Below are positions 645-30,865 of a stretch of DNA of 33,354 nucleotides, piece by piece. Source of the stretch: an uncultured Prevotella sp. (GTDB lineage Bacteria > Bacteroidota > Bacteroidia > Bacteroidales > Bacteroidaceae). The position numbers and the translations under genes are program-made. The stretch is from positions 1-33,354 of the forward strand of contig ONPM01000041.1 in NCBI GenBank assembly GCA_900319715.1, given 5' to 3'. The notes beneath the pieces were generated by a model. That model did no database searches and was not told where the DNA came from. It saw only the letters and a program-made list of their open reading frames with translations. The stretch's first letter is position 1. Each line of letters starts with the position of its first letter.

Positions 645-669
645 TGTTAATGACTTTTAAGGGTTATAC

Positions 670-1182: not shown

Positions 1183-1209
1183 GGAAGGTGCCTTTTTACT
1201 TTTATGACG

Positions 1210-1217
1210 CAAAAATA
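1210..1217 (-). promoter_or_regulatory. -7 promoter element of the sigma/anti-sigma operon
   Basis: The minus strand reads TATTTTTG, an exact match to the Bacteroidetes housekeeping -7 consensus TAnnTTTG. Transcription would begin near 1204, giving a leader of about 22 nt before the ATG at 1182. No clear -33 TTG was found. Confidence 0.5.
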
Positions 1218-17045: not shown

Positions 17046-17154
17046 TTTTTTGATTTTAACTTTATTTTAATGATTTAAATGGCCTAAGTGTACAAAATAC
17101 TTTTAAATAATTCTTTTTTTTTCCAATTTATGCACACAATTGAAAGAAATGTGC

Positions 17155-17162
17155 TATTTTTG
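17155..17162 (+). promoter_or_regulatory. -7 element of the glsA/glsB promoter
   Basis: TATTTTTG matches TAnnTTTG. The predicted start is near 17168, about 20 nt before the ATG at 17188. A longer reading frame that opens at a TTG (17140) would place this element inside the coding region, which supports the ATG. Confidence 0.5.
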
Positions 17163-17187
17163 CAAACTGTTAGCGAAAAAGAGAGAA

Positions 17188-18012
17188 ATGGCAGACTTGA
17201 CAGAGAAGACGATTGACATCGACAAGATTCTCAAAGAGAAAATGGGTCCGAAAGCAAAATTCGTGCCTGGTTTCCTTGTCAACTGGCTCAAACGCATCGC
17301 TCACCAAGACCAAGTGAACGCTTTTCTTTGGGAGAGTCGGGAGAAAGTGGGGGTAGACTGGCTTGAGGAATGCGTCAGATACCTCGACATGACTCTCAAG
17401 ATTGAAGGGCGCGAAAACCTGCCCGCTCCTGATGACGGACGTTTATATACCTTCGTGAGCAATCATCCCCTCGGCGGCGAAGACGGTGTAGCGCTTGGTG
17501 CCATTATCGGGCGCCACTACGACGGACGGTTCCGCTATCTCGTCAACGACCTCCTCATGAACCTTCCCGGCCTTGCTCCTGTCTGCATCCCCATCAACAA
17601 GACTGGTAACCAGAGCCGCAACTTCCCTGCTATGGTAGAGGCAGGGTTCCAGAGTCAGAACCACATGCTCATGTTCCCTGCCGGTCTTTGTTCCAGAAAG
17701 AAAAACGGAATCATCAGCGATATTCCCTGGACGAAGACCTTTATCTCGAAAAGCGTCCAATATCAGCGCGATGTCGTACCCATCCACTTCGGTGGCCAGA
17801 ACTCCAATTTCTTCTACCGCCTCGCCAATTTCAGCGATCGATGCCTGCCCTTCAACCTCGCCATGCTTTTCCTGGTTGACGAGATGTACAAGAATGTCCA
17901 CAAGACTTTTCGCGTGGCCATTGGCAAGCCCATCCCTTGGCAGACGTTCGACAAGAGCCGAACCCCCAAAGACTGGGCACAATATGTTCGCCAGCAGGTC
18001 TATACACTCTGA
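17188..18012 (+). CDS. glsA: Lysophospholipid-type acyltransferase, GlsA-like
   Basis: A 274-residue acyltransferase of the PlsC-related family. It probably O-acylates the N-acylated glycine made by the next gene to form glycine lipids. The active-site block reads SNHPLGGEDG (91-100), with His93 and Asp99 as the likely catalytic pair, and the glycerophosphate-like block is FPAGLCSRK (163-171). A basic, amphipathic N-terminus suggests membrane association. In Bacteroides thetaiotaomicron the glycine-lipid enzymes GlsA and GlsB are encoded side by side, and the same arrangement is seen here (42-bp spacing). The gene is divergent from the dcw operon. The specific substrate is inferred from this pairing and not read from the sequence. 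Confidence 0.78.
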   Translation: MADLTEKTIDIDKILKEKMGPKAKFVPGFLVNWLKRIAHQDQVNAFLWESREKVGVDWLEECVRYLDMTLKIEGRENLPAPDDGRLYTFVSNHPLGGEDGVALGAIIGRHYDGRFRYLVNDLLMNLPGLAPVCIPINKTGNQSRNFPAMVEAGFQSQNHMLMFPAGLCSRKKNGIISDIPWTKTFISKSVQYQRDVVPIHFGGQNSNFFYRLANFSDRCLPFNLAMLFLVDEMYKNVHKTFRVAIGKPIPWQTFDKSRTPKDWAQYVRQQVYTL

Positions 18013-18054
18013 ACCGTAATCCTAAACAATAAACTCAAAAACGCCCAACTAAAA

Positions 18055-19047
18055 ATGGAACAAGAGATTATCCAGCCGATAGACAAGGAAATCCTCAAAC
18101 AAGAGTTGACTCCTGAGCGCCAACTCCGTATGACGAACAAGAGTCATAACGAGATTTACATCATTACAGCCCACAATGCACCGAACGTGATGAAGGAAAT
18201 CGGACGACTTCGTGAGATTGCCTTCCGCGAAGCGGGAGGCGGCACAGGCAAGGCGATGGACATTGACGAGTTCGACACCTGTGACAATTGTTACAAGCAA
18301 CTCATCGTTTGGAATCCTGAGGCCGAAGAGATTATCGGTGGTTATCGCTATCTCGAGGGTACCGAATGGGAGATGGACGCCAACGGACAGCCGAAACTTG
18401 CGACCAGCCATATGTTCCATTTCTCAGAGAAATTCCTTAAGGAATATGCCCCTTATACCATCGAGTTGGGCCGTTCGTTCGTCTCGCTGCCTTACCAGAG
18501 TTCCAAGATGGGTGCCAAGAGTCTCTTCGCCCTTGACAATCTATGGGACGGACTGGGAGCACTCACCGTCATCAAGCCTAACGTCCGCTATTTCTTCGGC
18601 AAATTCACCATGTACCCCTCATATATCCGTCGTGGACGAGACATGATTCTCTACTTCCTTCACAAGCACTTTGCTGACACAGAAAACCTCATCGTACCGA
18701 TGAAACCGCTCCAGATTGAGGCTGACCCCAAAGAACTGGAGCAATTGTTCTGCGAGGAGGATTTCAAGGAAGACTACCGCATCCTCAACGCCGAGATCCG
18801 CAAACTAGGCTACAACATACCCCCATTGGTAAATGCCTACATGAGTCTGTCGCCCACCATGAAACTCTTCGGCACCGCCATCAACTACGGCTTTGGCGAT
18901 GTTGAGGAAACGGGTATCCTTATCGCGATTGAAGAGATTTTCGAGCAGAAGCGTGTGCGCCACATCGATTCGTTCATCAAGGAGCACCCCGAAGCCCTTA
19001 AGATCACCAGCGGCGCCAACAAGATTATCTATAAAGAGAAAGGTTAA
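18055..19047 (+). CDS. glsB: GNAT-family N-acyltransferase, GlsB/OlsB-like
   Basis: A 330-residue protein with the hemolysin/OlsB-type acyltransferase fold, expected to transfer a 3-hydroxy fatty acid from acyl-ACP to the amino group of glycine, the first step of glycine-lipid synthesis. Recognisable blocks are IGRLREIAFREAGGGTGKAMDID (split here: IGRLREIAFRE then GGTGKAMDIDEFD), CYKQLIVWNPEAEEIIGGYR, and ELGRSFVSLPYQ, the ExxRSFV core of the family. KLFGTAINYGFGDVEETGIL lies in the C-terminal part. It follows glsA on the same transcript and is closed by a terminator 4 bp after its stop. Glycine lipids support stress tolerance and colonisation in Bacteroides. Confidence 0.82.
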   Translation: MEQEIIQPIDKEILKQELTPERQLRMTNKSHNEIYIITAHNAPNVMKEIGRLREIAFREAGGGTGKAMDIDEFDTCDNCYKQLIVWNPEAEEIIGGYRYLEGTEWEMDANGQPKLATSHMFHFSEKFLKEYAPYTIELGRSFVSLPYQSSKMGAKSLFALDNLWDGLGALTVIKPNVRYFFGKFTMYPSYIRRGRDMILYFLHKHFADTENLIVPMKPLQIEADPKELEQLFCEEDFKEDYRILNAEIRKLGYNIPPLVNAYMSLSPTMKLFGTAINYGFGDVEETGILIAIEEIFEQKRVRHIDSFIKEHPEALKITSGANKIIYKEKG

Positions 19048-19050
19048 AGA

Positions 19051-19083
19051 TAGGGGGCCAAACCATAGGCTCCCTACTTTTTA
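19051..19083 (+). terminator. Rho-independent terminator after glsB
   Basis: TAGGGGGCC (19051-19059) pairs with GGCTCCCTA (19068-19076) with one G-U pair and an 8-nt loop, followed by CTTTTTA. It starts just after the glsB stop. Confidence 0.8.
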
Positions 19084-19171
19084 CCTAAGACTTTTTGTTT
19101 AGCCAAGCAAATCTCCCACCGTATTAAAGGATTTTTCCTTAAAAAAGTTTAAATCTTCTTCCAAATCCATC

Positions 19172-19197
19172 AACCTTTTGCATTTTTCCAGTTATAG
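19172..19197 (+). promoter_or_regulatory. Candidate ECF-type promoter of the sigma/Dma operon
   Basis: AACC (19172-19175) is followed after exactly 16 bp by TTATAG (19192-19197). An AAC-containing -35 with a 16-17 bp spacer is the usual layout for ECF sigma factors, and no TAnnTTTG element is found before the operon. The predicted start near 19204 leaves about 23 nt before the ATG at 19227. If correct, the sigma factor at 21236 may drive its own operon. The -10 sequence is only a weak match to anything known, so this is tentative. Confidence 0.35.
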
Positions 19198-19226
19198 CAA
19201 TAGACGAACATTAAAAAGCAATAGTT

Positions 19227-19364
19227 ATGAAACAGTTTGGAATAATACTTTTAGGATATAGTCTGGCAATGACCACTTCGTGTTCAAGTGACAAGAGTGA
19301 AGATGACCCCATTGTTCCCCAGGAAGTGGTTAACAATACTGGTAATGGCCTTGATAGCCGTTAG
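19227..19364 (+). pseudogene. Lipoprotein leader without a body (45 codons), overlapping the next gene
   Basis: An ATG at 19227 opens a 45-codon frame whose first 25 residues are a clear lipoprotein export signal: MKQFGIILLGYSLAMTTSC, with the lipobox cysteine at residue 19, then the acidic stretch SSDKSEDD. It stops at TAG 19362. From 19303 it is overlapped, in the +1 frame, by the start of a secreted protein with its own signal peptide. The last 20 residues therefore look like out-of-frame noise. The leader resembles that of the broken lipoprotein at 20554 (MRRLRILLLGAGIAVALSC), so the two are probably paralogous. It may be a remnant truncated when the next gene was joined to it, or a short real peptide. 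Confidence 0.6.
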
Positions 19365-20511
19365 TACAAGCGCCCAGGAAGAGGGAGAGCAGGAATGTTA
19401 TAAATGGGTAGACTTGACACCGGACGAGTCTTTCCTCTACAGATATGTTCAGGCGATGGACGAGGCAAGTCAGGAAGCCATCGAATCCTTTTATGCCGAG
19501 AAAAAGGATTCAGAGGATAGACAAATCCTCAAGGGTGACAGGGATAGATGGTATGTAAAAAAGGACTGCAATCTGCCTGAGGGTAATTTCTTTGAATCCA
19601 GTTTCTATAAGATGGCTCATGAAAACGAGAGGATTTACGTCGTCCTTCCAAGAATTGATGTGGACTTAAGGTCAAGTTGCAAGATCGAAGGTCTGCTGGA
19701 ATACTTTGGCGACAAAGTGTCGCTAGGCCACAGTTCCGAATGGTCCCATGAGGGTGAGGGAGGTTCATCATATCAACTGGTCTGCCACATGAAAACATCG
19801 CAAGAGGTGCTAAAAGCCATCGACGACAGATACGATTTTGAGAAGGAATGCATCATAAGGATCGAGCCGGCAATGTATTCTCTTGAAACGGACTACGACG
19901 CCTATCTGATTCGTGTACTGACAGGCAATACTGAGAAGGCTGACGTGAATGGTGAGAAAATCATCTCTGAAACGAACTGGGAAGGTTTGGTGTATCAGGT
20001 AATATGGGAAAATTATGATAATTACCCCTGGGAGACGACAGATGAAGGATTGGCCATTCACAATCCAAGTTTGAAAGATTACATGTGGACAGAAGTTAAT
20101 ACTGAACGGCTCGCACTTGACAAGGATAGCGATTACATCGTCCGTCTGACCCTGAAAGTTCCGTCTGACGGCACCTATCGTGTAAGATTAGGCAGTTGGG
20201 ACGAAATCCACGTGGATCAAGTTCCTGTAACAGCCAGCGACGACTTTCAGACGTTCGATTTTGAATTTCCCGAGTTCGGTAGCAACATCTATTGGGATGG
20301 TTTCACCTTACTCGATACTGGTTGGGTCTTAGGAACCACCGTCGTCAAGAAGGTTCAGGTCATAGAGAAGGAGAAAGGCGCCCCTGCAGCCATTAAGACC
20401 TTAAAGGCCAATAAAGCCGACGATACTATCTACAATCTCGCAGGCCAGAAGGTCAACGCATCATACAAAGGCCTCGTGATCAAGAACGGGAAAAAGATGA
20501 TCAATAAATAG
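19303..20511 (+). CDS. Secreted protein with T9SS-type C-terminal domain, function unknown
   Basis: A 402-residue exported protein of unrecognised function. The ATG at 19303 gives a clean signal peptide (MTPLFPRKWLTILVMALIAV then STSAQ, cleavage before EEGEQE). An in-frame GTG at 19288 is less suitable. Residues of about 30-215 form a mixed, charged domain I do not recognise. About 255-360 looks like a beta-rich jelly-roll or carbohydrate-binding-like module (YIVRLTLKVPSDGTYRVRLG). The last 35 residues, with IYNLAGQKV and KGLVIKNGKK, match the Prevotella-type C-terminal sorting motif of the type IX secretion system. The start overlaps a truncated lipoprotein leader in another frame. It shares a transcript with the sigma/anti-sigma pair downstream. 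Confidence 0.75.
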   Translation: MTPLFPRKWLTILVMALIAVSTSAQEEGEQECYKWVDLTPDESFLYRYVQAMDEASQEAIESFYAEKKDSEDRQILKGDRDRWYVKKDCNLPEGNFFESSFYKMAHENERIYVVLPRIDVDLRSSCKIEGLLEYFGDKVSLGHSSEWSHEGEGGSSYQLVCHMKTSQEVLKAIDDRYDFEKECIIRIEPAMYSLETDYDAYLIRVLTGNTEKADVNGEKIISETNWEGLVYQVIWENYDNYPWETTDEGLAIHNPSLKDYMWTEVNTERLALDKDSDYIVRLTLKVPSDGTYRVRLGSWDEIHVDQVPVTASDDFQTFDFEFPEFGSNIYWDGFTLLDTGWVLGTTVVKKVQVIEKEKGAPAAIKTLKANKADDTIYNLAGQKVNASYKGLVIKNGKKMINK

Positions 20512-20553: not shown

Positions 20554-21232
20554 ATGAGACGACTTAGAATATTATTGTTAGGTGCGGGAATAGCGGTCGC
20601 ATTGTCTTGCTCAAAAGACAATGACCAATTAGATTCGAAATGACACGACTGACATCTCTGACAAGATAACCTCCGACGGTATCTTCGAGGGCGAGTGGAG
20701 GCTGAGCAAGTATGGCAAGACCTGCAAGGGACAGATAGAAGTGAAGGGCGACCAGATTGTCGTCGATATCCCTGCCGACTACCTCTTCCCGAGGCTAAGC
20801 ATTGTTACAGAGGAAAGGAAGGCAATGTATCCCGAAGAGCCTCTCTTTACGACAATTGCCCCCCTCACATACTTGAACACCAGCCAGACAATGTTTTGTT
20901 CTACGCAGGGAGTTTCGAAAGACGCCAACTACTATGATGTCAAAAACATCGTAGGTGAAGGACGTGAAAAGGCATCATTCAATAATTATCCCACGTTTGA
21001 CATTAAAGTCGACGGCGTGGACTATAATATTGATTTAATCGGCATCAAGGAAAAGCCGACGGCGGTGTTTGACATCAACACAAAGTTGTGGACAGTGGCC
21101 ATTCCGATCGACCAGGTGTCTATCTACAGTCACCTGTCGCAAAAACAGATCGACGCCGCCTACCTCGATGAAGAAAGGCCAGAGAAGTCAGCATGGCTAT
21201 TCATATTCAGGGCGACAAGAAAGATCAAATAA
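20554..21232 (+). pseudogene. Lipoprotein gene with +1 frameshift after the signal sequence
   Basis: The frame from ATG 20554 encodes MRRLRILLLGAGIAVALSC (lipobox Cys19) plus SKDNDQLDSK and then meets TGA at 20641. The frame +1 to it continues directly from 20642 with DTTDISDKITSDGIFEGEW and runs open to TAA at 21230. This gives about 197 more residues with no credible start of its own except a GTG at 20741 in mid-domain. The body has alternating beta-type sequence and no recognised domain. A single-base change at GAAATGAC would restore one lipoprotein of about 226 residues. It ends 3 bp before the sigma factor gene. It is either a recent mutation, a sequence error, or recoding at UGA-C. Confidence 0.75.
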
Positions 21233-21235
21233 GTC

Positions 21236-21787
21236 GTGCAGGAGACAGAACGACAGTTGGTAGAGGCGATACAGGCTGGAGATAGGGAGGCGTTGCGACG
21301 CCTCTATGAGCGTTTCTCCAGATACGCTATGGGGGTGAGCCTGCGGATTGTGCCAGAGCGGGAGGATGCGCTCGACATCGTACAAGACACCTTTGTCAGC
21401 ATTCTCACCACCATCGGCTCCTTCGAATATCGTGGCGAGGGTTCGCTGAGAAACTGGGTGGCGAAAATTACCACCAACCGCGCCCTGGACTGGATGAGGG
21501 ATCACGGAAGGCTGCTGTTCTATGACCAACTGCCCGATGAAACCGCAGAAGAGGAGGATGAAACGCCCCTCGAGGAGATACCTCCAGATATACTGAGCGA
21601 GATGATTGACCGTCTGCCAGATACGAGCAGGATGATTGTCAACCTCCGCACCTTCGGGCAAATGTCCCACAAAGAGATTGCCGATAGACTCGGCATCAGT
21701 GACAAGACTTCAATGTCAACTTTCTCAAGAGCCAGAATACAATTGGCAAACATGATTAGAGAATATTTAAACTCACAAAGGATATGA
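21236..21787 (+). CDS. ECF sigma factor, Das-like (partner of a Dma-type anti-sigma factor)
   Basis: A 183-residue sigma-70 family factor. Region 2 lies at about 14-90, with EDALDIVQDTFVSIL (43-57) and GSLRNWVAKITTNRALDWMR (69-88). An acidic linker at 101-115 leads to region 4 at about 123-178, with SHKEIADRLGISDKTS (144-159) as the DNA-binding helix-turn-helix. The start is GTG at 21236, 3 bp after the stop of the lipoprotein gene. Its stop overlaps the start of the anti-sigma gene (ATGA), the strong coupling expected for a sigma/anti-sigma pair. The arrangement matches the Dma-associated sigma (Das) factors described in Bacteroides thetaiotaomicron. Confidence 0.88.
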   Translation: MQETERQLVEAIQAGDREALRRLYERFSRYAMGVSLRIVPEREDALDIVQDTFVSILTTIGSFEYRGEGSLRNWVAKITTNRALDWMRDHGRLLFYDQLPDETAEEEDETPLEEIPPDILSEMIDRLPDTSRMIVNLRTFGQMSHKEIADRLGISDKTSMSTFSRARIQLANMIREYLNSQRI

Positions 21788-23088
21788 AACAGGAAAGGCA
21801 TCAGACAGACAAGCACAGCCAGGAAGACCAATGGACCCAACGGCTGCGCGACCATCTGGCAGACATCGAAGCGCCTGTGCCTGATGATCTGTGGGAGAAG
21901 ATCGAGGCGAGACTACCGAAGGAAGTGGCAAGTACGACTCCGAAGAAGGAGGCCCGCATCGTTCCTTTGTGGGCGAGATGGGCTGCTGCGGCAGTGATTG
22001 TGGGAGGATTGGTGATTTTGTGGAATGTGAAGAGTGGAATGTGGAATGAGAATAGTTTATTGAGCAGCAAAAGCGAGACGACGAAGAAGACCTCTGCAGA
22101 AAAGACACCTGCACTGATGAAATCGAAGAGATCTGAGGAGTCAGAGTCATCTGAGAGCATTGAACAGGGCGTAAAGGTTCCCACCCTCTTGGCTGAGGAA
22201 ATGCCGATGGAATCGGAGAAAAAAGTAGAAGAAATGCCTTTGGTGCCCGTTTCATCAGAAGAAAAGCCCAATGAGCCCATTTTGCCTGTTTCATCAGAAG
22301 AAAAGTCCAATGAGTCCATTCAGCCCATTTCATCGGAGAAAAAGCCCAATGATTCCGAGAAGAGTCCGGAGAATGTAATCCGCGAACTAAATCAGAAGAT
22401 CGCAGCATACAAGCAGCGTCGCAGCGGGAGCGCCACCATCAACCTCTATGCCTCCAACGGCTTCGGCAACCAATCATACCGTAACGGTGTGCTGATGAGT
22501 CAGGAACTGCTCTCTAATTATGATTACTATAGGAACCCCGACAGCCACGGAACCCGAGTCGGCGACAGTCCCGTCTATCTGGCAAACCATGAGGAAAGGC
22601 AGAATTTCTACCAACCTATCTCGTTCGGCTTGAGCGTGAATATCCCCATTTCATCGAAATTCTCAGTATCGACGGGTGTGGTCTATACCCGTCTGAGTTC
22701 TGACTTTACAAGTATCGCCAACAGCCTCGTCTATGAGCGGCAGCAGAAACTGCACTATGTGGGCATCCCGCTGACGGTACAGTATAACGTGTGGCAATGG
22801 CACGGGCTGAATGTCTATGCGACGGCTGGTGGACAAGCAGACTTTAATGTGAAAGCGTACATGACGACAGAGGGCACAGAAACGAAGTTGGAGAAAGACA
22901 ACTTGCAATGGTCGGTAAATGCCGCCCTAGGTGTCCAGTATAACTTCATTCCCCAGTTAGGTATCTATGTAGAACCAGGCATCAAGCACTACTTCAACAA
23001 TGGCAGCCATATCCAGAACTACTTCAAGCACCGTCCTACGAACTTCAACCTACAGATTGGACTAAGACTGAACATGGGAAAGAAATAA
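21784..23088 (+). CDS. Dma-like dual membrane-spanning anti-sigma factor (inner-membrane anti-sigma domain fused to outer-membrane beta-barrel)
   Basis: A single 434-residue chain that should span the whole envelope. Residues 1-60 are a cytoplasmic anti-sigma domain with the typical segment PVPDDLWEKIEARLPKE (31-47). Residues 62-82 are one transmembrane helix (WARWAAAAVIVGGLVILW). Residues 83 to about 210 are a hydrophilic, Glu/Lys/Ser/Pro-rich periplasmic linker that includes three 13-residue repeats (155-193). Residues of about 213-434 are a PorT/OmpX-type beta-barrel, with alternating strands such as ISFGLSVNIPISSKFSVSTG and the final strand NFNLQIGLRLNM. There is no signal peptide, as expected for a chain anchored by the internal helix. 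Dma proteins in Bacteroides control outer-membrane vesiculation; a similar envelope-sensing role is inferred here. Confidence 0.85.
   Translation: MKQERHQTDKHSQEDQWTQRLRDHLADIEAPVPDDLWEKIEARLPKEVASTTPKKEARIVPLWARWAAAAVIVGGLVILWNVKSGMWNENSLLSSKSETTKKTSAEKTPALMKSKRSEESESSESIEQGVKVPTLLAEEMPMESEKKVEEMPLVPVSSEEKPNEPILPVSSEEKSNESIQPISSEKKPNDSEKSPENVIRELNQKIAAYKQRRSGSATINLYASNGFGNQSYRNGVLMSQELLSNYDYYRNPDSHGTRVGDSPVYLANHEERQNFYQPISFGLSVNIPISSKFSVSTGVVYTRLSSDFTSIANSLVYERQQKLHYVGIPLTVQYNVWQWHGLNVYATAGGQADFNVKAYMTTEGTETKLEKDNLQWSVNAALGVQYNFIPQLGIYVEPGIKHYFNNGSHIQNYFKHRPTNFNLQIGLRLNMGKK
22246..22362 (+). repeat. 39-bp tandem repeat, three imperfect copies, in the Dma linker
   Basis: Copies at 22246-22284, 22285-22323 and 22324-22362 encode PVSSEEKPNEPIL, PVSSEEKSNESIQ and PISSEKKPNDSEK. 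The unit length is a multiple of three, so copy-number change would lengthen or shorten the periplasmic linker without shifting the frame. Confidence 0.9.
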
Positions 23089-23156: not shown

Positions 23157-23861
23157 TTATTCAACCAACAATTGTAAGCCGACACCGCGGACGGTTTTAA
23201 GGGTGATTCGAGGTTCGTCGGAGAGCAGTTTACGCAGTTTGTTGACGAAGACGTCGAGAGAACGGGAAGCGAAATAGTCGTCCTCAGTATTCCAGAAGCG
23301 ACTGAGGATGGCCTCGCGCCTCACGACATGGTTCTGATTCTCTGCCAGAAGTTGCAGGATCTGGGCCTCGCGCTGGGTGATGGTCTGCGACAAGTCTGTT
23401 TCGTCATCACGCAGCGTGGCGTGGTCGGCATCGAGCGTATATTTACCCAGTTTATAATGGTTGGTCTCTTTCTGCGTCCTCGCCCCACCCCTCATCTTCA
23501 TCAGAGCCTGGATATGGGCATCCAGTTCCTCTGGCACGAAAGGCTTCTTCACGTAGTTGTTGATGCCAAGACGGTAGCCGGCCTTCACATCATTGGGCGA
23601 CGTGAGGGCCGAGGTGAAGATGATGATCACATCGCCGTCAGTCTCACGGATACGCTCCACCATCTCGAAACCGTTCATCACAGGCATGTCTATATCGGAG
23701 ATAATGACGTCGGGATGAGTCTGCTGCCAGGCTTGCAAGCCTTCCTTCCCGTTGGCAGCGGTGGTCACGTCGTAGCCGCCGATGATATCCTCGAGACCAG
23801 TCTTCTCGATATACGCTAACGATGCGTCGTCTTCAACCAAGAGTAACTTTACCATATTCAT
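23157..23861 (-). CDS. OmpR/PhoB-family response regulator
   Basis: A two-component response regulator of 234 residues. The receiver domain (about 3-118) has the acidic pair in LLVEDD, the phosphoacceptor in IISDIDMPVMNG (Asp56), a Thr/Ser in FTSALTS and the conserved Lys in VKKPF. The C-terminal winged-helix DNA-binding domain (about 135-234) includes ITQREAQILQLLAENQNHVV and SLDVFVNKLRKLLSDEP, ending in TVRGVGLQLLVE. The start is ATG 23861 or 23855; the TTG at 23864 is unlikely. It lies 24 bp after the kinase gene on the same strand, so the two form a pair. The direct targets cannot be read here. Confidence 0.92.
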   Translation of the reverse strand: MNMVKLLLVEDDASLAYIEKTGLEDIIGGYDVTTAANGKEGLQAWQQTHPDVIISDIDMPVMNGFEMVERIRETDGDVIIIFTSALTSPNDVKAGYRLGINNYVKKPFVPEELDAHIQALMKMRGGARTQKETNHYKLGKYTLDADHATLRDDETDLSQTITQREAQILQLLAENQNHVVRREAILSRFWNTEDDYFASRSLDVFVNKLRKLLSDEPRITLKTVRGVGLQLLVE

Positions 23862-23885
23862 CAAGATTTTTTATGAAGATCATCA

Positions 23886-25178
23886 TTATTGTTTGGGGAT
23901 AAATAGTGTAAATTCGGAGTACTGGTCTTTCTCACTCGTGACGGTCACCCTGCCTCCGTGGGCCTGCATGACCTGATCGACGTAGTTCAGTCCAAGACCG
24001 AAGCCTGAGACACCGCCCTTGCGGTTCTTCTCATGCACGGCAGCACGGCCGAACTTATCAAAGATAATACGCTGGTCTTCCTTGGAGATGCCGATACCGT
24101 TATCGTGGACCTTCAAAAGTACGTATTTGTCACTGTTCTGGGTGGTGATGCTGATGCTGACCGTGTCCTTGGAATACTTGATGGCGTTGTCGACGAGGTT
24201 GGAGATGGCCTCTGTGAGATATTGCTCATCAGCGAGGACATGATGCACCAGCAAATCTACGATGAAATCGATGTTTTTATCCGTTTTTGCCTTCGCTTTC
24301 TCTACGATATCATCGATGATGGGTTCCAGGTTCACGTCCTGCTTGTTCAAGATGAGTTTCTTGTTTTCAAGTTTCGAGATAGTGAGCAGTTTGTTGACGA
24401 GTGCCAGCAGGTGCTCCGCCTCACTCTCGATGATGGAGTAGTATTTCTCCTTGATCTGTGGCTTGTCGTCCACCTTGCCGCTATGCAGGAAGCGGGCTCC
24501 CATGATGATGCTCGACAGAGGCGACTTCATGTCGTGCACCATTGCATAGGAGAAGTCGTTACGAAGGTCTGCCATCATCTTCTGCTCGTCGAGGTAGCGC
24601 AGCAGTCTCAGCAAGATGGCTCCGAAGAGTATCAGGATGATGGCACTGGCCGCAAAGAGCGGGCTAAGCCTTCTGGCGAGCGTCGGATAGGGATTATTAA
24701 GCGCAAGCCTGATACCCCGCGACTGGTCACGACGGGTGCTGAATACCCGGGTCTTCAGCGATGCCGATGAGGACTGGGCATTGTTCTGGCGGAGGATGCG
24801 GCCGTCGGCGTCGACCTCCATCAGGGTAAAATTCCGGTCGAGGCTTACCACGCTGAGCAGGGAGTCGACATACTGTGCCAATGTATCGAGCGACACTTCG
24901 GAGTGATAACGCCGACTGAGCACATCGTTCATGCCCTCTACCGAAGACTCCAGCGAGAGGTCGCCGCGCAGATGAGGCAGGCTGAGGGTGTCGCCCACAG
25001 ACACGACCTCCGCCCGCTGGTAACTCTCGTAGAACATGCCCCACGTCAGTTGGTTGCCGGCTCTCTCAGAGATGTCACGAACGGCCGAGCGGTAGGTCAT
25101 CCACATATAGAGTCCCAACAGCAGCATCACTGCCACCATCGCCGCTACAGACACATATTTGTATTTATTCTTCTGCAT
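23886..25178 (-). CDS. Sensor histidine kinase
   Basis: An inner-membrane sensor kinase of 430 residues, partner of the next gene. Transmembrane helices lie at about 8-27 and 172-192 and enclose a periplasmic sensing domain of roughly 145 residues that I do not recognise. The dimerisation domain has the phosphoacceptor His215 in YAMVHDMKSPLSS. The ATP-binding domain shows the N box NLVDNAIKYS (327-336), G1 DNGIGI (359-364), F box FDKFGRA (373-379) and G2 GFGLGL (392-397). The ATG at 25178 is chosen over an in-frame TTG at 25190 that overlaps a possible -7 element. It lies downstream of the TonB/DUF4249/MG2 genes on the same strand. Confidence 0.93.
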   Translation of the reverse strand: MQKNKYKYVSVAAMVAVMLLLGLYMWMTYRSAVRDISERAGNQLTWGMFYESYQRAEVVSVGDTLSLPHLRGDLSLESSVEGMNDVLSRRYHSEVSLDTLAQYVDSLLSVVSLDRNFTLMEVDADGRILRQNNAQSSSASLKTRVFSTRRDQSRGIRLALNNPYPTLARRLSPLFAASAIILILFGAILLRLLRYLDEQKMMADLRNDFSYAMVHDMKSPLSSIIMGARFLHSGKVDDKPQIKEKYYSIIESEAEHLLALVNKLLTISKLENKKLILNKQDVNLEPIIDDIVEKAKAKTDKNIDFIVDLLVHHVLADEQYLTEAISNLVDNAIKYSKDTVSISITTQNSDKYVLLKVHDNGIGISKEDQRIIFDKFGRAAVHEKNRKGGVSGFGLGLNYVDQVMQAHGGRVTVTSEKDQYSEFTLFIPKQ

Positions 25179-25187
25179 TCCTGCCTG

Positions 25188-25195
25188 CAAAGGTA
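25188..25195 (-). promoter_or_regulatory. Possible promoter of the kinase/regulator pair
   Basis: The minus strand reads TACCTTTG, matching TAnnTTTG and identical to the element before the protease gene. It lies within the 106-bp gap before the kinase start. The leader would be only about 4 nt, which weakens the call. A TTCGC sequence lies at roughly the -33 distance. Confidence 0.3.
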
Positions 25196-25284: not shown

Positions 25285-26550
25285 TTATTGAGGAAATTCA
25301 TATACCAGATATTGCGCATTGTGCTCAACAGGATAGTTCGTCAGGCGCCCCGAACGGGTTACAAACGACAGTATTCCATTATAGATGCCATTGCCGAATG
25401 TGTATTGGCCGCTGTATATGTTGATATAGTGAACGCGACGGGCATCATAGTCCAGAAGCCGCTCTACGTTGACGACAGGCATACCGTCTATGAAAACCAT
25501 TGTAGGCCATGAACTGTCGTAGGAGCCCTGCTCTTTTCGGACCATCAACTGTAGTACGTCATTCACTTTCCTGGTCGTCACACAATTCACATACTCAAGC
25601 AGCACCTCCTTGACCGTAAAGAACTGACGGTACTCGTCGAGATTATAGGTCAGGTCAGGTCTGGTACCCAAAATCGTTTCGTCATAGTCCAACGGCACAC
25701 CTTCCACGGCGGTGTCGTCCGCATCATCTCCGATCTTTATTTCACGTTTGGCTGGTGCGATAGCCATCTGATGCCGCTGCATGTCGATAGAACGGGCTTC
25801 CACCTCGCTGCGATTATAATGGAACACCAGATGCGGCAGGCGCTTCGGAATCAAGTTCGCAAAAGGACTGATCAACTCGACAGGCAGGCTCACGCCTGTT
25901 GTCGACACAGCAGAGAGCACCAGTGGCCGCTTGCCATGGATGCCATAGGTGTAGAAGACCGCGATAGAGTCGTTCATCATCCTACCCTCGAAATAATGGA
26001 TCTGCTTCCCAATGATTGCCAAGGAAGGACGTATCTGGTTGCCACTGAATGTGTTACCGTCACAGACATTCCTGACTCGTGCCCTGATGACGTGGCCTTC
26101 CGTCTCACGTACACTGGTGGCCTTCACGACCTGCTCAATGGGGAACGGGTCGGAGGACAGATAACTCAACGAGTCGGGATGGGCGATTTTCACCCATTCG
26201 ATATCGTCGTCCTCATGCTTGTGAAGAGGATTGACAACGGCGACCAGTTGACGGGACACCTGGGCTTTGTCACGAGTGTAAGCCGACAGCACATAATACC
26301 CGCTGTGGAGGTTGGAAGACAGTTCGATCATGCCCGCTCCCTTCCCTTCCTGAAGGCCAATCACGACGCCTGCCGCCATACCGTACGTATCACACAGTTC
26401 CGCGTAGGCTATCACGGCATCAGCCGTGACGCTGACTTTCATCGCCTCACCTGCAAGATACCAGGTGCGGTCTGTCTTTACATCTATAGCAAAGGTGCTC
26501 AGAGCAAGCACCAGCGCAGCTGTCAGCGATAATATTCTGTTGTTATTCAT
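25285..26550 (-). CDS. Exported protein with MG2-like N-terminal domain and receptor-plug-like C-terminus
   Basis: A 421-residue exported protein of unassigned function. A signal peptide is present (MNNNRILSLTAALVLALSTF then A). Residues of about 22-110 resemble a macroglobulin MG2-type domain (TDRTWYLAGEAMKVSVTA, then ELSSNLHSGYYVLSAYTRD). The last 110 residues resemble a TonB-receptor plug without a barrel, with VFIDGMPVVNVERLLDYDA, YINIYSGQYTFGN and GILSFVTRSG. The start is ATG 26550; the earlier in-frame codon is GTG at 26556. It follows the DUF4249 lipoprotein after a 26-bp purine-rich repeat spacer and belongs to the same transcript as the receptor. A role in handling the receptor's ligand at the cell surface is inference. 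Confidence 0.72.
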   Translation of the reverse strand: MNNNRILSLTAALVLALSTFAIDVKTDRTWYLAGEAMKVSVTADAVIAYAELCDTYGMAAGVVIGLQEGKGAGMIELSSNLHSGYYVLSAYTRDKAQVSRQLVAVVNPLHKHEDDDIEWVKIAHPDSLSYLSSDPFPIEQVVKATSVRETEGHVIRARVRNVCDGNTFSGNQIRPSLAIIGKQIHYFEGRMMNDSIAVFYTYGIHGKRPLVLSAVSTTGVSLPVELISPFANLIPKRLPHLVFHYNRSEVEARSIDMQRHQMAIAPAKREIKIGDDADDTAVEGVPLDYDETILGTRPDLTYNLDEYRQFFTVKEVLLEYVNCVTTRKVNDVLQLMVRKEQGSYDSSWPTMVFIDGMPVVNVERLLDYDARRVHYINIYSGQYTFGNGIYNGILSFVTRSGRLTNYPVEHNAQYLVYEFPQ

Positions 26551-26556
26551 CTTCAC

Positions 26557-26595
26557 TCTTTCACTTTTTCACCTTTTCACTCTTCTTCACTTTTC
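26557..26595 (-). repeat. Purine-rich repeat spacer before the MG2-like gene
   Basis: On the minus strand this is an array of GTGAAAAGG, GTGAAAAA, GTGAAAGA and GTGAAG units that begins within the last codons of the DUF4249 gene (residues EEE, stop TGA inside the array) and ends at the next ATG. Its 15-bp core (26565-26579) is identical to one in the ftsI-murE spacer at 12930-12944. Confidence 0.65.
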
Positions 26596-27758
26596 TCTAC
26601 CCAGAAATCAGGTTCTTCAATATATGCCCCTTTAGATCTCACGTCGAGTTGCCAGTCGAAGGCCCATGCCGTCTTCAACGAGCCAAACGATATCCTGTTG
26701 TCTTCCCATTCGCAGAGGAACATGCCTTTGTCCACCTGCAGGGCGCAATCATCTTCGGTGCAATTATCGAGCCACAAACGGGAGTCTTCCCTCTGAGGGA
26801 TCTGGATAGACAATTCTTTGGCATCGAGGAAGAACCTGTATTCACTGGTATTCAATGAGCATCCTACGAAGCCGATCACATGCTTGTCTGACGTGAGACA
26901 GTGGATATTAGTAGGCAGGGCAGACGGCTGGGGAGTAAACAGGCCTCCCATCTCCGAACCAGCCTGGCGACGGGCCATCTCGTACTCATACTCTGCCTTT
27001 GAGATGGCACGCTGGTGCACCAGACCGCTATACCTGTAATAGATACGCTCATTGCTGCAGTCTATGTCGTACATCTTGAGGCGACGGATATGCTGGTCTT
27101 TGTAACTGCTGCTGGCACCCACCATGATCGTCGGGGCTGTCGCATCCTTCCATCCTATATGAGGAAAGAGGTTCGCTTGATAGACACGCTTCATGGCCTC
27201 TTTGTCAAAATACATGTTGGTCGTGTAGTCGGAATGTACCTCCCAGGTCTCATCGCAGGTCCACGAATAATAGTTCGCCCTGTCAGGCTCAAAGGGATCG
27301 GCTGGCGTGACAAGCACGTCGACACGATTCTTCAGGGAGTCACGGACACCCGTCACCTCGACAACCTTCTCTGTAGGCATCGGTCTCTGAGGCTCTGACT
27401 CATAGACCTCGCCGTCGCTCTCGATATGCAGATAGTACTCCACGTCAGGAGAGAGCACGCCGACCTGGCAGACGTACTGGCCATAGACCCCCTGCGCCAG
27501 ATACTCAGAACCGTCGCTCCCCCTGACAGAGACATGGGCTCCCATGACCTTTTGCAACTCGTCGGAAGAGTTCAGAGCCTGAGTACGCGACAGGACAAAC
27601 GTGTTGATCCTGGAAGAACATATAGCGCCCTCCACAACGAGCAAGTCAGAATCATCTGCAGGAATGTCTGCCTCAAACTCCTCAATACAGCCCGACAGTG
27701 TACTCATGCCCACCATGAGACAAAGCACAATATATAGCGATCTCATCTGTTTCATCAT
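26577..27758 (-). CDS. DUF4249-family outer-membrane lipoprotein
   Basis: A 393-residue lipoprotein that regularly accompanies a TonB-dependent receptor in Bacteroidetes. The signal ends in a lipobox STLSGC with Cys24 as the lipid anchor, followed by the acidic IEEFEAD stretch. The first domain (about 36-130) looks Ig/beta-sandwich-like (LLVVEGAICSSRINTFVLSR, VSVRGSDGSEY). The second domain carries the family's aromatic segments such as YYSWTCDETWEV and the late DCALQVDKGMFLCEWED. It starts 3 bp after the receptor's stop, with AGGAT just before the ATG, so the two are translationally linked. Members are thought to act with the receptor in ligand capture, but no substrate is established. Confidence 0.85.
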   Translation of the reverse strand: MMKQMRSLYIVLCLMVGMSTLSGCIEEFEADIPADDSDLLVVEGAICSSRINTFVLSRTQALNSSDELQKVMGAHVSVRGSDGSEYLAQGVYGQYVCQVGVLSPDVEYYLHIESDGEVYESEPQRPMPTEKVVEVTGVRDSLKNRVDVLVTPADPFEPDRANYYSWTCDETWEVHSDYTTNMYFDKEAMKRVYQANLFPHIGWKDATAPTIMVGASSSYKDQHIRRLKMYDIDCSNERIYYRYSGLVHQRAISKAEYEYEMARRQAGSEMGGLFTPQPSALPTNIHCLTSDKHVIGFVGCSLNTSEYRFFLDAKELSIQIPQREDSRLWLDNCTEDDCALQVDKGMFLCEWEDNRISFGSLKTAWAFDWQLDVRSKGAYIEEPDFWVEKSEEE

Positions 27759-27761
27759 ATC

Positions 27762-30728
27762 CTAATTGAATCGTATATTAAGTGAGACGTACGGAATGGC
27801 CGTGCCAAACACAGACAACTTATACCCCTTGATTTCCTCCCCCTCTGTGACATAATAGACATTATAGGCATTCTTGCGGGCAAGGGCATTATAGACGCCA
27901 ATAGAGAACGATGTGTGGAGGAAGGATGTCAACTTATGGGTCGGCTCGATATTGAACGCAAGGTCCAGTCGCATATAGTCCGGAATACGATAGGTGTTGC
28001 GGTCTGTATAGTAGGGCATGTATTTCTGGTTGTACGAGTCGTAGTATTTGCCGGCAGGCAGTGTCGTCGGACGGCCCGTGGCGTAGTTGAAGTTGCTTGA
28101 GAAACTGTACCTCTCCGTGAACTTCAGGTTGAGTACGGCCTTCACCTCATGCGGTCTGTCATACTCTGAAGGGTACCACTCGCCATTGTTCAGAGGCACT
28201 GCCACCCGCTCGTCGTCCTGACGGAGTTGAGAGCGCGAGTAGGTGTAACTCACCCAGCCGTTCAGCGTTCCCACAGGCTTCTTCACCTGAAGTTCCACGC
28301 CGTATGCCCGTCCCTTCGTCGAGATCACGTCTGTCTCCAGATGATGGTTCATCAGCAGCACCGCCGAACTGCGATAGTTGAGGTAGTCGCCGATATGCTT
28401 GTAATACACCTCTGCCGAGAACTCATACTTCTTGCCTGCCGTCTCATGATAGATACCTGCCGCCACCTGCCAGCCGTTCTGGGGCTTGATGTTGAGGTCG
28501 GAGAGTTTCCAGATGTCTGTAGGCGACATGATCGACGTGTTCGACACCTTATGGATATACTGGTGCATCGTGTTGAAGCCCGCCTTCAGCGAGAGGTTCT
28601 CCATCAGCGCATAGCGGGCCGACAGGCGGATCTCCGGGGCATGATAGGTCTTGATGATACCCGTCTCACGGCGAGTCTCCAACAACGTCTCCTCTGTCGG
28701 GAGTTCGCCGTCATGGTAAAAGTTCACGTCACGCGGACCCAGCGCATTGAACATCGAATAGCGCAATCCTGCCGACACAGACAGTTTCTCTGTGAACGAG
28801 TGCTCATAGTCGATAAACGCAGCACTCTCCAGCGCCTTCTCCCGCTGTAACTGGTCTGTCGTGATGCACGACTCCTCGCTTATCGGCTCATACGTTCCGC
28901 CCTGCACGTTGTAGTGCTGTACAGAGAGACCGTACGAGAGCACCTGCTTCTCTGACAATCGCTGACGGACATGCAGTTTGCCCCATATCTGGTCGATGCC
29001 GAAACTCAGCCTGGCGGCCATAGAGGGCGTGTTCCTGTCCTCATTGAAATAGTCGTAGTGGTCCAGTCCTGCAGAGGCCGTGAGCGTCACCCTTTCATTC
29101 AGCAGCGAGCGCCACTCGGCAGAGAAGTTACGGTTCTCGTAGCCATACTTGTCCTGCGAACTGAACGAGAACTTATCATGACTCCAGTAACCATATATCT
29201 TGAGACGGTGCAGGCTGTTGAGTTTCCAGGTCAGCACGCCGCTGAAGTCATAGAAGTTGGCCGAGCCGTTCTTGTAGCCGCTGTCCTCAGGCAATTGCTT
29301 GAGCATCCAGTCGCTGTACGTCGTGCGCCCATTCAGCAACAGCGACACATGATCCTTCACGATAGGCACCTCGACATTCGCCTTACTGGTCAATGCGCCG
29401 ATACTGGCCGAGCCCGTCAGTTTCTGCATATTGGCCTCCTTCGAGGTCACCTTCAGCACACTGCTGATCCTGCCGCCATACTCCACGGGAATGCTCGACT
29501 TGAACAGTTCCACATCCTCTACGGCATCAGAATTGAACGACGTGAACAGTCCGAACAGATGCGAGGGATTATACACCGTTCCGCCATTAAACAATATCAG
29601 GTTCTGGTCTGTCGCCCCGCCTCGCACATTATAGCCGCTCGAAGCCTCTCCGACGGTAGTGACACCAGGCAACGTGAGCACCACCTTCATGATATCCGAC
29701 TCGCCAAAGGCCGACGGGATGTTCTTCAGCAACTGGGGCTTGAACTTCTCAGACCCCATCGTCGTGCTCCTCACCGCCGACTGGCGACCACCCACGACGA
29801 CGATCTCCGCCAGTTCCTGATCGTCGGCGACACTCGCCCTTGCCTTCTGCACCCCTGGCACGATATAGACCTTTGTCTTTGCTGAACCTGTTGTCGAAAG
29901 CGTGTCGCTGTCAAGAACGGGAATGCCGGCGATGAGGGAGTCCGCTGGGATGAGAATCGGAGGTACGGGGGTACGAGGGTACGGGGGTACGAGATTTGAT
30001 TCTGCGCTTGATGTATTCTCGAGCCCCCGCGCCACCGCGCCCCCGCGCTCCCGATCGTTCACAACGCCCTCCACCACCTTCACAAGACTCTGCTCCCGCT
30101 CCTTCTTTGAGAACGAAAGATGTCGCTGCTTCGCCATCTGCTTGATCTGGCCTTTCTGTTCAGGGAATATCCTGGCCACGTCCCTGGCATTCTTCACATG
30201 GTGGATGGCGCCGTCAGCAGTCTGCAGCGAGTAGTACTCATTCGTACTGAGTACCTTCACATATTTCTTCCCTCCGAAAGAGTTCTCACCGCCGTACACC
30301 TTCCACACACTATGATAAAGGCGGACCCCGTTCCCGCTTCCGTCGCAGAGCAGGGCCGCAAACCGTGAGCCGTCCTCAGGATCGTGCACATATCTGCGAC
30401 CATCCATCTCAAACCAGTCTATGCAGGCCTGCTCTGGCAGACAAAACACACCCTTGACGGGAGTGAGCACCGCCACCCGCTGCTCCAACTGGTCAAAGCG
30501 CAATTGCACCTCATCATACACCACCCCATGATAACAGATACGGCCCTGATACACATTCGTATTGCCTTTATAATAGGGGATATCATGCCACAACGACACC
30601 TGGTACTGAGGCTCTATCGGCCCCACATACAGTCGGGCATAGTCAGAAGCAGAGCGGAAGTAGTCCTGAGCCCCAGCATACTGTACGACTGCCATCATAC
30701 AGACTAATGCAAACAAAATCTTTTTCAC
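27762..30728 (-). CDS. TonB-dependent outer-membrane receptor with non-standard N-terminal domain
   Basis: A 988-residue outer-membrane active transporter. The start is GTG 30728, the only start in frame with the signal peptide (MKKILFALVCMMAVVQYAGA), 18 bp after a -7 element. Residues 21 to about 200 form a periplasmic domain that is not the usual carboxypeptidase-regulatory-like domain of these receptors (YFRSASDYARLYVGPIEP, YHGVVYDEVQLRFDQLEQRV). Residues of about 201-300 are a linker rich in Pro/Arg/Gly encoded by two 8-bp-period repeats. A TonB-box-like ELAEIVVVGGR is at 305-315. The plug follows (SGYNVRGGATDQNLILFNGG), then a 22-strand-type barrel ending in IPYVSLNIRFN. It heads an operon with DUF4249 and the MG2-like gene. 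Confidence 0.93.
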   Translation of the reverse strand: MKKILFALVCMMAVVQYAGAQDYFRSASDYARLYVGPIEPQYQVSLWHDIPYYKGNTNVYQGRICYHGVVYDEVQLRFDQLEQRVAVLTPVKGVFCLPEQACIDWFEMDGRRYVHDPEDGSRFAALLCDGSGNGVRLYHSVWKVYGGENSFGGKKYVKVLSTNEYYSLQTADGAIHHVKNARDVARIFPEQKGQIKQMAKQRHLSFSKKEREQSLVKVVEGVVNDRERGGAVARGLENTSSAESNLVPPYPRTPVPPILIPADSLIAGIPVLDSDTLSTTGSAKTKVYIVPGVQKARASVADDQELAEIVVVGGRQSAVRSTTMGSEKFKPQLLKNIPSAFGESDIMKVVLTLPGVTTVGEASSGYNVRGGATDQNLILFNGGTVYNPSHLFGLFTSFNSDAVEDVELFKSSIPVEYGGRISSVLKVTSKEANMQKLTGSASIGALTSKANVEVPIVKDHVSLLLNGRTTYSDWMLKQLPEDSGYKNGSANFYDFSGVLTWKLNSLHRLKIYGYWSHDKFSFSSQDKYGYENRNFSAEWRSLLNERVTLTASAGLDHYDYFNEDRNTPSMAARLSFGIDQIWGKLHVRQRLSEKQVLSYGLSVQHYNVQGGTYEPISEESCITTDQLQREKALESAAFIDYEHSFTEKLSVSAGLRYSMFNALGPRDVNFYHDGELPTEETLLETRRETGIIKTYHAPEIRLSARYALMENLSLKAGFNTMHQYIHKVSNTSIMSPTDIWKLSDLNIKPQNGWQVAAGIYHETAGKKYEFSAEVYYKHIGDYLNYRSSAVLLMNHHLETDVISTKGRAYGVELQVKKPVGTLNGWVSYTYSRSQLRQDDERVAVPLNNGEWYPSEYDRPHEVKAVLNLKFTERYSFSSNFNYATGRPTTLPAGKYYDSYNQKYMPYYTDRNTYRIPDYMRLDLAFNIEPTHKLTSFLHTSFSIGVYNALARKNAYNVYYVTEGEEIKGYKLSVFGTAIPYVSLNIRFN
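29962..29993 (-). repeat. 8-bp tandem repeat (4 units) inside the TonB receptor gene
   Basis: Four 8-bp units on the plus strand, GGTACGGG, GGTACGAG, GGTACGGG, GGTACGAG, form a perfect 16-bp duplication. They encode part of the Pro-rich linker (about residues 246-256). Because 8 is not a multiple of three, gain or loss of one unit would shift the frame. Confidence 0.92.
30025..30048 (-). repeat. Second 8-bp tandem repeat (3 units) inside the TonB receptor gene
   Basis: CCCCGCGC, CACCGCGC and CCCCGCGC follow head to tail, with a degenerate fourth unit TCCCGATC. The stretch is far more GC-rich than its surroundings and encodes the Arg/Gly/Ala part of the linker (about residues 227-234). It lies 31 bp from the other 8-bp array. 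Confidence 0.85.
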
Positions 30729-30753: not shown

Positions 30754-30865
30754 TACCTTTTCCTATATATATAATGGATAGACGATAAAAAACTTGCATG
30801 AAATCAGAATTATTTAACAAAGTTTGGCTTTTACATGAGAGGTGGTAACTACTTAGCACTCTAGA

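What the first reader, a model, noticed from the sequence alone, without database searches (positions are those of the whole stretch)
21236..23088. Single-chain transenvelope sigma switch: ECF sigma factor plus Dma-like anti-sigma/beta-barrel fusion
One protein combines a cytoplasmic anti-sigma domain (1-60), one inner-membrane helix (62-82), a roughly 130-residue linker and an outer-membrane beta-barrel (213-434). It would let an outer-membrane event reach a sigma factor without a protein relay. The ATGA overlap with the sigma gene and the shared operon with a lipoprotein and a T9SS-type secreted protein support one sensing module. Dual membrane-spanning anti-sigma (Dma/Das) factors that control vesiculation are known in Bacteroides thetaiotaomicron. 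The new element here is the accompanying surface-protein cargo and a T9SS-bearing host.
Basis: partly seen in the sequence, partly recalled or inferred. Interest (0 to 1): 0.72.

Follow-up and report, generated by a model that had tools for sequence, protein, structure and literature searches.

The report
Envelope-spanning sigma switch with surface cargo
A Prevotella-family bacterium carries a gene switch whose control protein appears to reach in one chain from the cell interior through both membranes to the surface; this kind of switch is already known in gut Bacteroides, and what is added here is a likely promoter for it and an unexpected link to surface protease inhibitors in related genomes.

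Summary
Window 21236-21787 is an ECF sigma gene overlapping (ATGA) a 434-residue protein: N-terminal domain, one inner-membrane helix, a 139-residue low-complexity tether, C-terminal outer-membrane barrel domain (Pfam). This matches the published Dma/Reo anti-sigma kind of Bacteroidota. Added here: (1) Relatives fall into lineages: the window's has an unnamed 'GxFEGEW' lipoprotein where an EcfO-Reo-like one has NigD; a third fuses sigma directly to helix, tether and barrel. (2) A bipartite promoter-like motif (about TGCAAGATTT-N12/13-GTTATA-N3-ATAGA) precedes these operons; a matrix trained without the window finds its two best sites in the window at the Dma operon and at a neighbouring TonB-receptor/DUF4249/kinase/regulator operon. 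(3) Serpin genes cluster with Dma genes: 10 of 38 and, in a second genome set, 6 of 45 serpin places lie within 3 kb (expected about 0.2 each); a control peptidase family gave 0 of 150 listed rows. The own genome's serpin is not near its Dma gene. The upstream lipoprotein is frame-broken here and the cargo gene has an odd start. Barrel closure, sigma binding, location and vesiculation were not testable.

The parts
19051..19076 (+). terminator-like hairpin after the upstream acyltransferase gene (operon boundary)
   Evidence: 4 such sites found against 3.9 in shuffles, so weak on its own
19167..19205 (+). predicted ECF promoter of the Dma operon (CAACCTTT-N12-GTTATA-N3-ATAGA)
   Evidence: 19.1 bits with a matrix trained without the window, second best site in 33 kb; only 0-mismatch site of the N12 pattern in the genome (the pattern was designed to include it)
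19227..19364 (+). truncated lipoprotein leader (45 aa), remnant of a gene that is whole and separate in L032 (3008-3838)
19300..20511 (+). secreted protein with a T9SS-type C-terminal motif by eye (403 aa from ATG 19300); shares a domain with an own-genome protein downstream of another motif site
   Evidence: homologue in L032 1760-2983
20554..20643 (+). lipoprotein leader (29 aa), out of frame with its body
20633..21232 (+). body of the 'GxFEGEW' lipoprotein; 76% identical to the intact L032 gene
21236..21787 (+). ECF sigma factor
21784..23088 (+). Dma-like anti-sigma / outer-membrane barrel protein
21784..21963 (+). predicted cytoplasmic anti-sigma domain, residues 1-60
   Evidence: found in 32 of 32 unfused homologues by a profile trained on them, in 0 of 12 sigma-fused ones; alignment
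21967..22029 (+). inner-membrane helix, residues 62-82
22030..22431 (+). periplasmic tether, residues 83-216 (repeat at 22244-22352; conserved stretch 194-216)
22432..23085 (+). outer-membrane barrel domain, residues 217-434 (about 8 strands by eye on the alignment)
30761..30800 (-). predicted ECF promoter of the TonB-receptor operon
   Evidence: 28.9 bits, best site of the window; the orthologous place in L033 scores 32.8
27762..30728 (-). TonB-receptor-like protein (Plug domain), predicted regulon member
26577..27758 (-). DUF4249 lipoprotein
25285..26556 (-). 423-aa protein, no Pfam family
23886..25190 (-). sensor histidine kinase
23157..23864 (-). response regulator

Best explanation
An autoregulated envelope-stress switch. 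The Dma-like protein holds its cognate ECF sigma at the inner membrane with residues 1-60 (inferred) and is anchored by one helix. A disordered tether joins the helix to an outer-membrane barrel (architecture shown by sequence; closed barrel inferred). A disturbance at the outer membrane, sensed by the barrel alone or with the partner lipoprotein of the same operon, frees the sigma factor, most likely by cleavage of the chain near the inner membrane (inferred). The sigma then transcribes promoters of the type TGCAAGATTT / CAACCTTT-N12/13-GTTATA-N3-ATAGA (motif shown, its use inferred): its own operon, a few other surface lipoprotein genes, and the TonB-receptor/DUF4249/kinase/regulator operon next door. 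The outcome is a remodelled cell surface; in some related genomes the cargo includes serpins.
For: Domain order and ECF sigma. A sigma gene directly upstream in 30 of 32 unfused relatives tabulated, with a 4-base overlap in 19 (of the other two, L058 is at a contig end and in L041 the gene picker lost a sigma ORF that one search shows in L008). Tether length kept within about twofold (105-194 residues, median 132, n 32) while its letters are not: window against L032 25% in the tether, 80% in residues 1-60, 88% in the barrel. A lineage of 12 proteins in which sigma itself replaces the anti-sigma domain in front of helix, tether and barrel, so that release there implies cleavage. Motif upstream of the operons: leave-one-out, the operon site is the best hit of its stretch in 11 of 12 training loci and second in L033; a different version, TGCAGTCTTT, in 12 of 12 fused loci. 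Own-genome sites upstream of lipoprotein genes. Published: disruption of a same-architecture anti-sigma switches on its sigma regulon (PMC9308784; PMC13088901).
Against: No test of sigma binding, membrane location or cleavage. The motif was first aligned by eye, and in some loci the picked start codon had to be placed further downstream for the site to lie before the gene (L036, L043, L045, L054). Unfused loci L046, L047 and L062 and five of nine NigD-linked loci have no operon site with this matrix. Of 8 own-genome pattern sites 3 are judged chance, and for the N13 spacing the reversed-pattern control gave 2 against 2. By eye the TonB-receptor operon also has a housekeeping-like TAnnTTTG element, so it may not depend on this sigma. 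The frame-broken lipoprotein leaves open that the operon is decaying in this strain.
Confidence: 0.74

Rival explanations
1. Release without proteolysis: the barrel or tether changes shape or tension, the anti-sigma domain lets go, and the chain stays whole.
For: Tether length stays within about twofold, as a mechanical link might need; a conserved stretch sits just before the barrel (residues 194-216, 78% against L032, but 22% against L037).
Against: 105-194 residues of low-complexity sequence is slack rather than taut over a periplasm of usual width (inference), and in the fused lineage sigma cannot leave without cleavage.
Confidence: 0.3
2. The Dma half is a pure outer-membrane anchor with no sensing; sigma is controlled by partner switching or by the neighbouring kinase/regulator pair.
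For: A response regulator and kinase lie convergent next door and recur beside Dma genes in several relatives (L032, L033, L037, L038, L070).
Against: In P. vulgatus, insertions in the same kind of anti-sigma gene alone turn on the regulon (PMC9308784, passages). Kinase and regulator stay at the same site when the Dma type differs (L070), which suggests plain synteny.
Confidence: 0.1
3. The operon is degenerate in this strain: sigma and Dma remain, the output lipoprotein is lost, and the switch has little function.
For: The lipoprotein leader and body are out of frame, a second leader is truncated, and a candidate regulon lipoprotein on C147 also looks frame-broken after its leader.
Against: Sigma and Dma are intact with a high-scoring promoter; two other candidate regulon lipoproteins (C163, C151) look whole; the breaks may be assembly errors, the genome being an incomplete draft of 192 contigs (89% complete).
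Confidence: 0.2

Closest known systems
Dma1/Das1 and Dma2/Das2 of Bacteroides thetaiotaomicron (PMC13088901: abstract, introduction, discussion, one results section and passages read; the PNAS 2024 Dma1 paper is not held, not read)
   Same: Domain order (N-terminal sigma-binding part, helix, long disordered tether, C-terminal barrel), adjacent ECF sigma gene, small operon with an extra gene, Bacteroidota host.
   Different: Different partner gene (GxFEGEW lipoprotein plus CTD-type cargo here; a DUF4943 protein in the dma2 operon with a DUF4858 gene next to it; nigD1 at another place for Dma1). Vesiculation not tested here.
EcfO-Reo of Bacteroides fragilis and Phocaeicola vulgatus (PMC9308784 and PMC13114119, passages read; the 2013 EcfO paper is not held, not read)
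   Same: Sigma followed by an anti-sigma described as spanning cytoplasm to surface, surface lipoprotein genes in the regulon, proposed outer-membrane stress sensor.
   Different: EcfO-Reo has NigD lipoproteins; the intact orthologue of the window's lipoprotein has no NigD domain, and the window's sigma groups apart from the NigD-linked ones.
Dma3 of B. thetaiotaomicron (described in PMC13088901)
   Same: Helix, tether and barrel.
   Different: Dma3 carries its sigma in the same chain; the window keeps sigma as a separate protein. The 12 fused relatives found here look like the Dma3 form; no direct comparison with Dma3 was made.
FecI-FecR-FecA type cell-surface signalling (recalled)
   Same: Carries an outer-membrane signal to an ECF sigma.
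   Different: Uses separate inner- and outer-membrane proteins that touch in the periplasm, not one chain.

Membership tests
Dma (dual membrane-spanning anti-sigma) | N-terminal sigma-binding domain | tested here: inconclusive
   Conserved N-terminal domain in 32 of 32 unfused homologues (profile trained on them; alignment); binding not testable
Dma (dual membrane-spanning anti-sigma) | Single transmembrane helix after it | tested here: met
   Residues 62-80, mean hydropathy 1.79, the only stretch above 1.6
Dma (dual membrane-spanning anti-sigma) | Long disordered tether | tested here: met
   139 residues, 69% P/E/K/S/T/Q/D/N; 25% identical to L032 with 47 gap columns; disorder judged by composition only
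Dma (dual membrane-spanning anti-sigma) | C-terminal outer-membrane beta-barrel | tested here: met
   OMP_b-brl_2, 41.1 bits against cut-off 27; closed barrel not modelled, no PDB relative by sequence
Dma (dual membrane-spanning anti-sigma) | Adjacent ECF21-group sigma gene | tested here: inconclusive
   ECF sigma shown; no tool here assigns the ECF group number
Dma (dual membrane-spanning anti-sigma) | Control of vesiculation | not testable with these tools
   needs mutants
EcfO-Reo | NigD lipoproteins in the regulon (one seems to lie beside the pair, by locus number) | tested here: not met
   For the neighbour gene only: the intact orthologue of the window's lipoprotein (L032 4709-5413) matches no Pfam family at E up to 0.1, while a lipoprotein of the other class matches NigD_N 3e-23 and NigD_C 7e-38. 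The own genome was not searched for nigD genes elsewhere
Dma3-like (sigma in the same chain) | Sigma domain N-terminal in the barrel protein | tested here: not met
   Sigma is a separate ORF; fused forms are a separate clade of 12
Type IX secretion host | SprA/Sov translocon in the genome | tested here: met
   SprA_N E 3.2e-210; other components not searched
Type IX cargo (window 19300-20511) | C-terminal sorting domain matched by a curated family | tested here: not met
   No Pfam match in the C-terminal part and no NCBIfam match; only a recalled motif by eye and regex

The most novel reading that the evidence does not exclude
In Prevotella-like bacteria, Dma-type switches form a sensing and defence system against proteolytic attack on the cell surface: damage to the barrel, tether or partner lipoprotein frees sigma, which switches on surface lipoproteins, type IX cargo and inhibitory serpins. 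The window's version would be a branch of it whose targets also include a TonB-receptor/two-component operon.
Probability: 0.27. Interest if true: 0.75.

Novelty: new member of a known kind. Interest (0 to 1): 0.47.

Why it matters
What these envelope-spanning anti-sigma factors sense is open in the papers read. A promoter motif for this lineage gives a way to predict their regulons from genomes alone, and the recurring serpin neighbours give a concrete, testable idea of the stimulus. The natural series (paired, NigD-linked, sigma-fused) lets the release step be tested by comparison.

Tried and rejected
Orthologue of EcfO-Reo: rejected, the partner lipoprotein is not NigD and the sigma groups elsewhere. 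Solved relative in PDB: none significant. Kinase/regulator as part of the switch: not excluded, but the pair stays at the site when the Dma type differs, so read as synteny apart from the promoter evidence. A strict motif (GTTATA plus ATAG) over 40 relatives and the own genome: no match, too strict to be useful. Sigma-70-type promoter scan: 9 sites against 5.2 in shuffles, none used. The pattern site on C105 seems to lie inside a gene (place taken as the middle of the locus) and was read as chance. Peptidase C13 next to fused genes was noticed after the fact and is not claimed as tested.

Rows handled before counting. Serpins: split matches of one gene were merged (G016, G000, G025 C135; G091, G088 C21, G073 C112) and two rows under the family cut-off were dropped (G027, G009 C2). 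Dma places of the first set: only genomes G000-G035, single-sequence search; pieces of one gene merged. Second set: profile search; 52 places kept, rows that matched only the N-terminal or tether part, or a short barrel piece, dropped. Peptidase C10 control: only the 150 rows that one search listed, the rest being unlisted. L047_10 (a partial barrel hit) was dropped from the 45 barrel genes, leaving 44 (32 unfused, 12 fused). In the sigma tree the label 'GEWlipo' was set by hand and includes L042, whose lipoprotein did not join the cluster.

Full report
What is there. The window lies in a draft genome (3.19 Mb, 192 contigs, 89% complete). The two named assemblies found with this protein are uncultured Prevotellaceae (RUG195, RUG12181; 'RUG' recalled as rumen genomes). 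Beyond the cell-wall (dcw) gene cluster (recognised by eye) and two acyltransferase genes come, on the + strand, a truncated lipoprotein leader joined to a secreted CTD-type gene, a frame-broken lipoprotein gene, the ECF sigma gene and the Dma-like gene. Sigma and Dma overlap by ATGA. Pfam gives sigma regions 2 and 4 for the first and OMP_b-brl_2 for the end of the second. Residues 62-80 form the only strong hydrophobic stretch. In L032 the corresponding genes are whole: a DUF4377 lipoprotein, the CTD-type gene, three further lipoproteins, sigma, Dma.

Anatomy across relatives. A search of 60 related genomes found matches in 31. From 42 fetched stretches plus the window, 45 barrel genes were read; one partial hit was dropped, leaving 32 unfused and 12 fused. 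In the unfused form the tether runs 105-194 residues (median 132) and the barrel part has a median of 215 residues; in the fused form the tether is 106-140. Between the window and L032 the N-terminal domain is 80% identical, the barrel 88%, the tether 25% with 47 gap columns. The window's tether holds a 39-bp repeat and that of L033 a run of charged repeats. Length is kept within about twofold, letters are not: the mark of a passive tether (inference). The window's own genome gave only this one clear copy.

Three lineages. By the sigma tree (43 rows, quick method, SH-aLRT only, very distant outgroup) the 12 fused sigmas are one clade (support 99). The window sits in a group of 13 (support 86), 10 of which I had labelled as having the 'GxFEGEW' type of lipoprotein upstream; the 9 NigD-linked sigmas lie outside the larger clade that holds this group and the fused one (support 88). 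The GxFEGEW lipoproteins form one similarity cluster of 13 genes; 5 of the 13 were scanned and none reached a Pfam cut-off. The other cluster holds 12 genes; the one scanned is NigD by Pfam. In the fused lineage the helix starts right behind sigma region 4 (over the hydropathy threshold in 11 of 12) and no anti-sigma domain is found by a profile of the window's type. If that sigma works away from the membrane it must be cut free, which favours proteolytic release for the family (inference). A Dma3 of this form is described in PMC13088901.

Promoter motif. Stretches upstream of the operons share a bipartite element, in the window's lineage about TGCAAGATTT-N12/13-GTTATA-N3-ATAGA, in the fused lineage TGCAGTCTTT followed 11-13 bases on by GACT. 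TGCAGTCTTT occurs in 12 of 12 fused loci (17 sites; in L075 only before the neighbouring lipoprotein, the fused gene having a variant) and once in the other loci; the version with the GAC half was found in 6 of the 12 by the regex used. A matrix from 12 hand-aligned sites, the window left out, has its two best hits in 33 kb at 30800 (-), 28.9 bits, upstream of the TonB-receptor operon, and at 19167 (+), 19.1 bits, upstream of the Dma operon; the best score in 40 mononucleotide shuffles was 17.0. With each locus left out in turn, the operon site is the best hit of its stretch in 11 of 12 training loci and second in L033, where the receptor gene comes first (32.8 against 27.4). Some of these scores (L037, 15.0) are no higher than shuffles reach. 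Of the unfused, non-NigD loci outside the training, L040, L048, L053 and L063 have their best hit there; L046, L047 and L062 do not; L038, L058 and the second gene of L039 end too near a contig edge. In L036 the receptor gene has a weaker site (19.0, spacing 14). Of the 9 NigD-linked loci L057, L060 and L061 have their best hit before the NigD gene (14.3-17.1, about what shuffles reach) and L059 a weak one (12.1); L049, L050, L051, L052 and L055 have none there.

Own-genome sites. With at most 2 mismatches the N12 pattern gave 6 sites (reversed-pattern control 0) and the N13 pattern 2 (control 2). Apart from the two window sites, which the pattern was built to include, C147 and C163 (near-identical surroundings, so one duplicated unit) and C151 lie just before lipoprotein genes; C128 (inside a gene), C113 and C133 are judged chance. 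Downstream of the C151 lipoprotein, after a gap of 376 bases, come a 481-residue gene and a 517-residue CTD-type protein that shares a domain with the window's cargo protein (39% over 161 residues, E 2e-26). The EcfO motif is said in PMC7366714 (passages) to have been published in 2013; I could not read it, so I cannot say how close it is.

Serpins. Serpin genes (PF00079) were found beside or inside Dma operons. In genomes G000-G035, 10 of 38 serpin places lie within 3 kb of one of 49 Dma places (expected 0.22). In a second set, G060-G103, drawn before its Dma genes were known, 6 of 45 lie within 3 kb, at 4 of 52 Dma places (expected 0.18). As a control, of the 150 listed peptidase C10 rows in the same genomes 0 lie within 3 kb and 1 within 5 kb. 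Several serpin places share one Dma locus and genomes of one genus are not independent, so the probabilities printed there are optimistic. In L037 and L054 the serpin is the first gene of the Dma operon, behind the motif (15.0 and 28.6 bits); in L056 a divergent operon of lipoproteins that ends in the serpin has a motif of its own (20.6), in L053 the divergent serpin a weaker one (15.8). L095 has the same divergent order as L056; in L093, L094 and L071 the serpin follows a fused gene with a peptidase C13-like gene upstream. Of 9 serpin genes in the stretches scanned, 6 match an EEG(T/S)EA(A/S)A hinge, recalled as the mark of inhibitory serpins; those of L037, L071 and L094 did not match that regex. 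The own genome's only serpin lies on another contig and is split over two frames, so for the window itself the link is by kinship only.

Comparison with print. Read: PMC13088901 (abstract, introduction, discussion, one results section, passages), PMC9308784 (abstract, passages), PMC13114119, PMC12596196 and PMC7366714 (passages only). They describe anti-sigma factors of this architecture, their sigma partners, NigD in the regulon, induction by toxins that act on the envelope and effects on vesicles. The word serpin does not occur in PMC13088901 or PMC13114119, and the 8 papers shown by each of two searches joining serpin with sigma terms (49 and 412 papers in all) did not look to be about this link. 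That is not proof of absence: the lists were capped and subscription papers are missing.

Verdict. A real, well-conserved member of a known kind, in a lineage with its own lipoprotein partner. What is worth following is the promoter motif, the predicted neighbouring receptor operon and the serpin link. No laboratory step is shown here.

Noticed in passing
window 20554-21232; L086 2180-2627; window 19227-19364: Two lipoprotein genes of this genome that lie behind the motif break frame soon after the lipid-attachment cysteine, and a third leader runs into the cargo gene; draft errors, decay or slippage in Asp/Asn-rich codons are all possible.
   Followed up: partly
G000 C67:30035-31064 (L092): The genome's only serpin gene is split over two reading frames.
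   Followed up: no
L036/L037 (G018), L038 (G020), L070 (G013): What looks like the same chromosomal site (aminotransferase, a gene with an FGGERPLF motif, kinase/regulator) holds different Dma types, and in G018 two Dma systems flank receptor/DUF4249 genes: a possible exchange hotspot.
   Followed up: partly
L071, L093, L094: Recurring gene order: peptidase C13-like, CTD-type protein, sigma-barrel fusion, serpin.
   Followed up: partly
L065 6283-8433, L066 11548-13685, L074 1734-3814: Fused genes are accompanied by a 351-355-residue gene with a CxxxCxxC motif (recalled as radical-SAM type) and a 354-359-residue gene; the fused-lineage motif directly precedes the pair in L065 and L066.
   Followed up: no
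window 60-1212 (-): A second, unrelated ECF sigma gene with a downstream gene that by eye looks like an ordinary short anti-sigma factor.
   Followed up: no
window 17140-19047: Two acyltransferase-like genes (one GNAT type, PF13444; the other by eye) directly before the operon, resembling amino-acid lipid synthesis genes (recalled).
   Followed up: no
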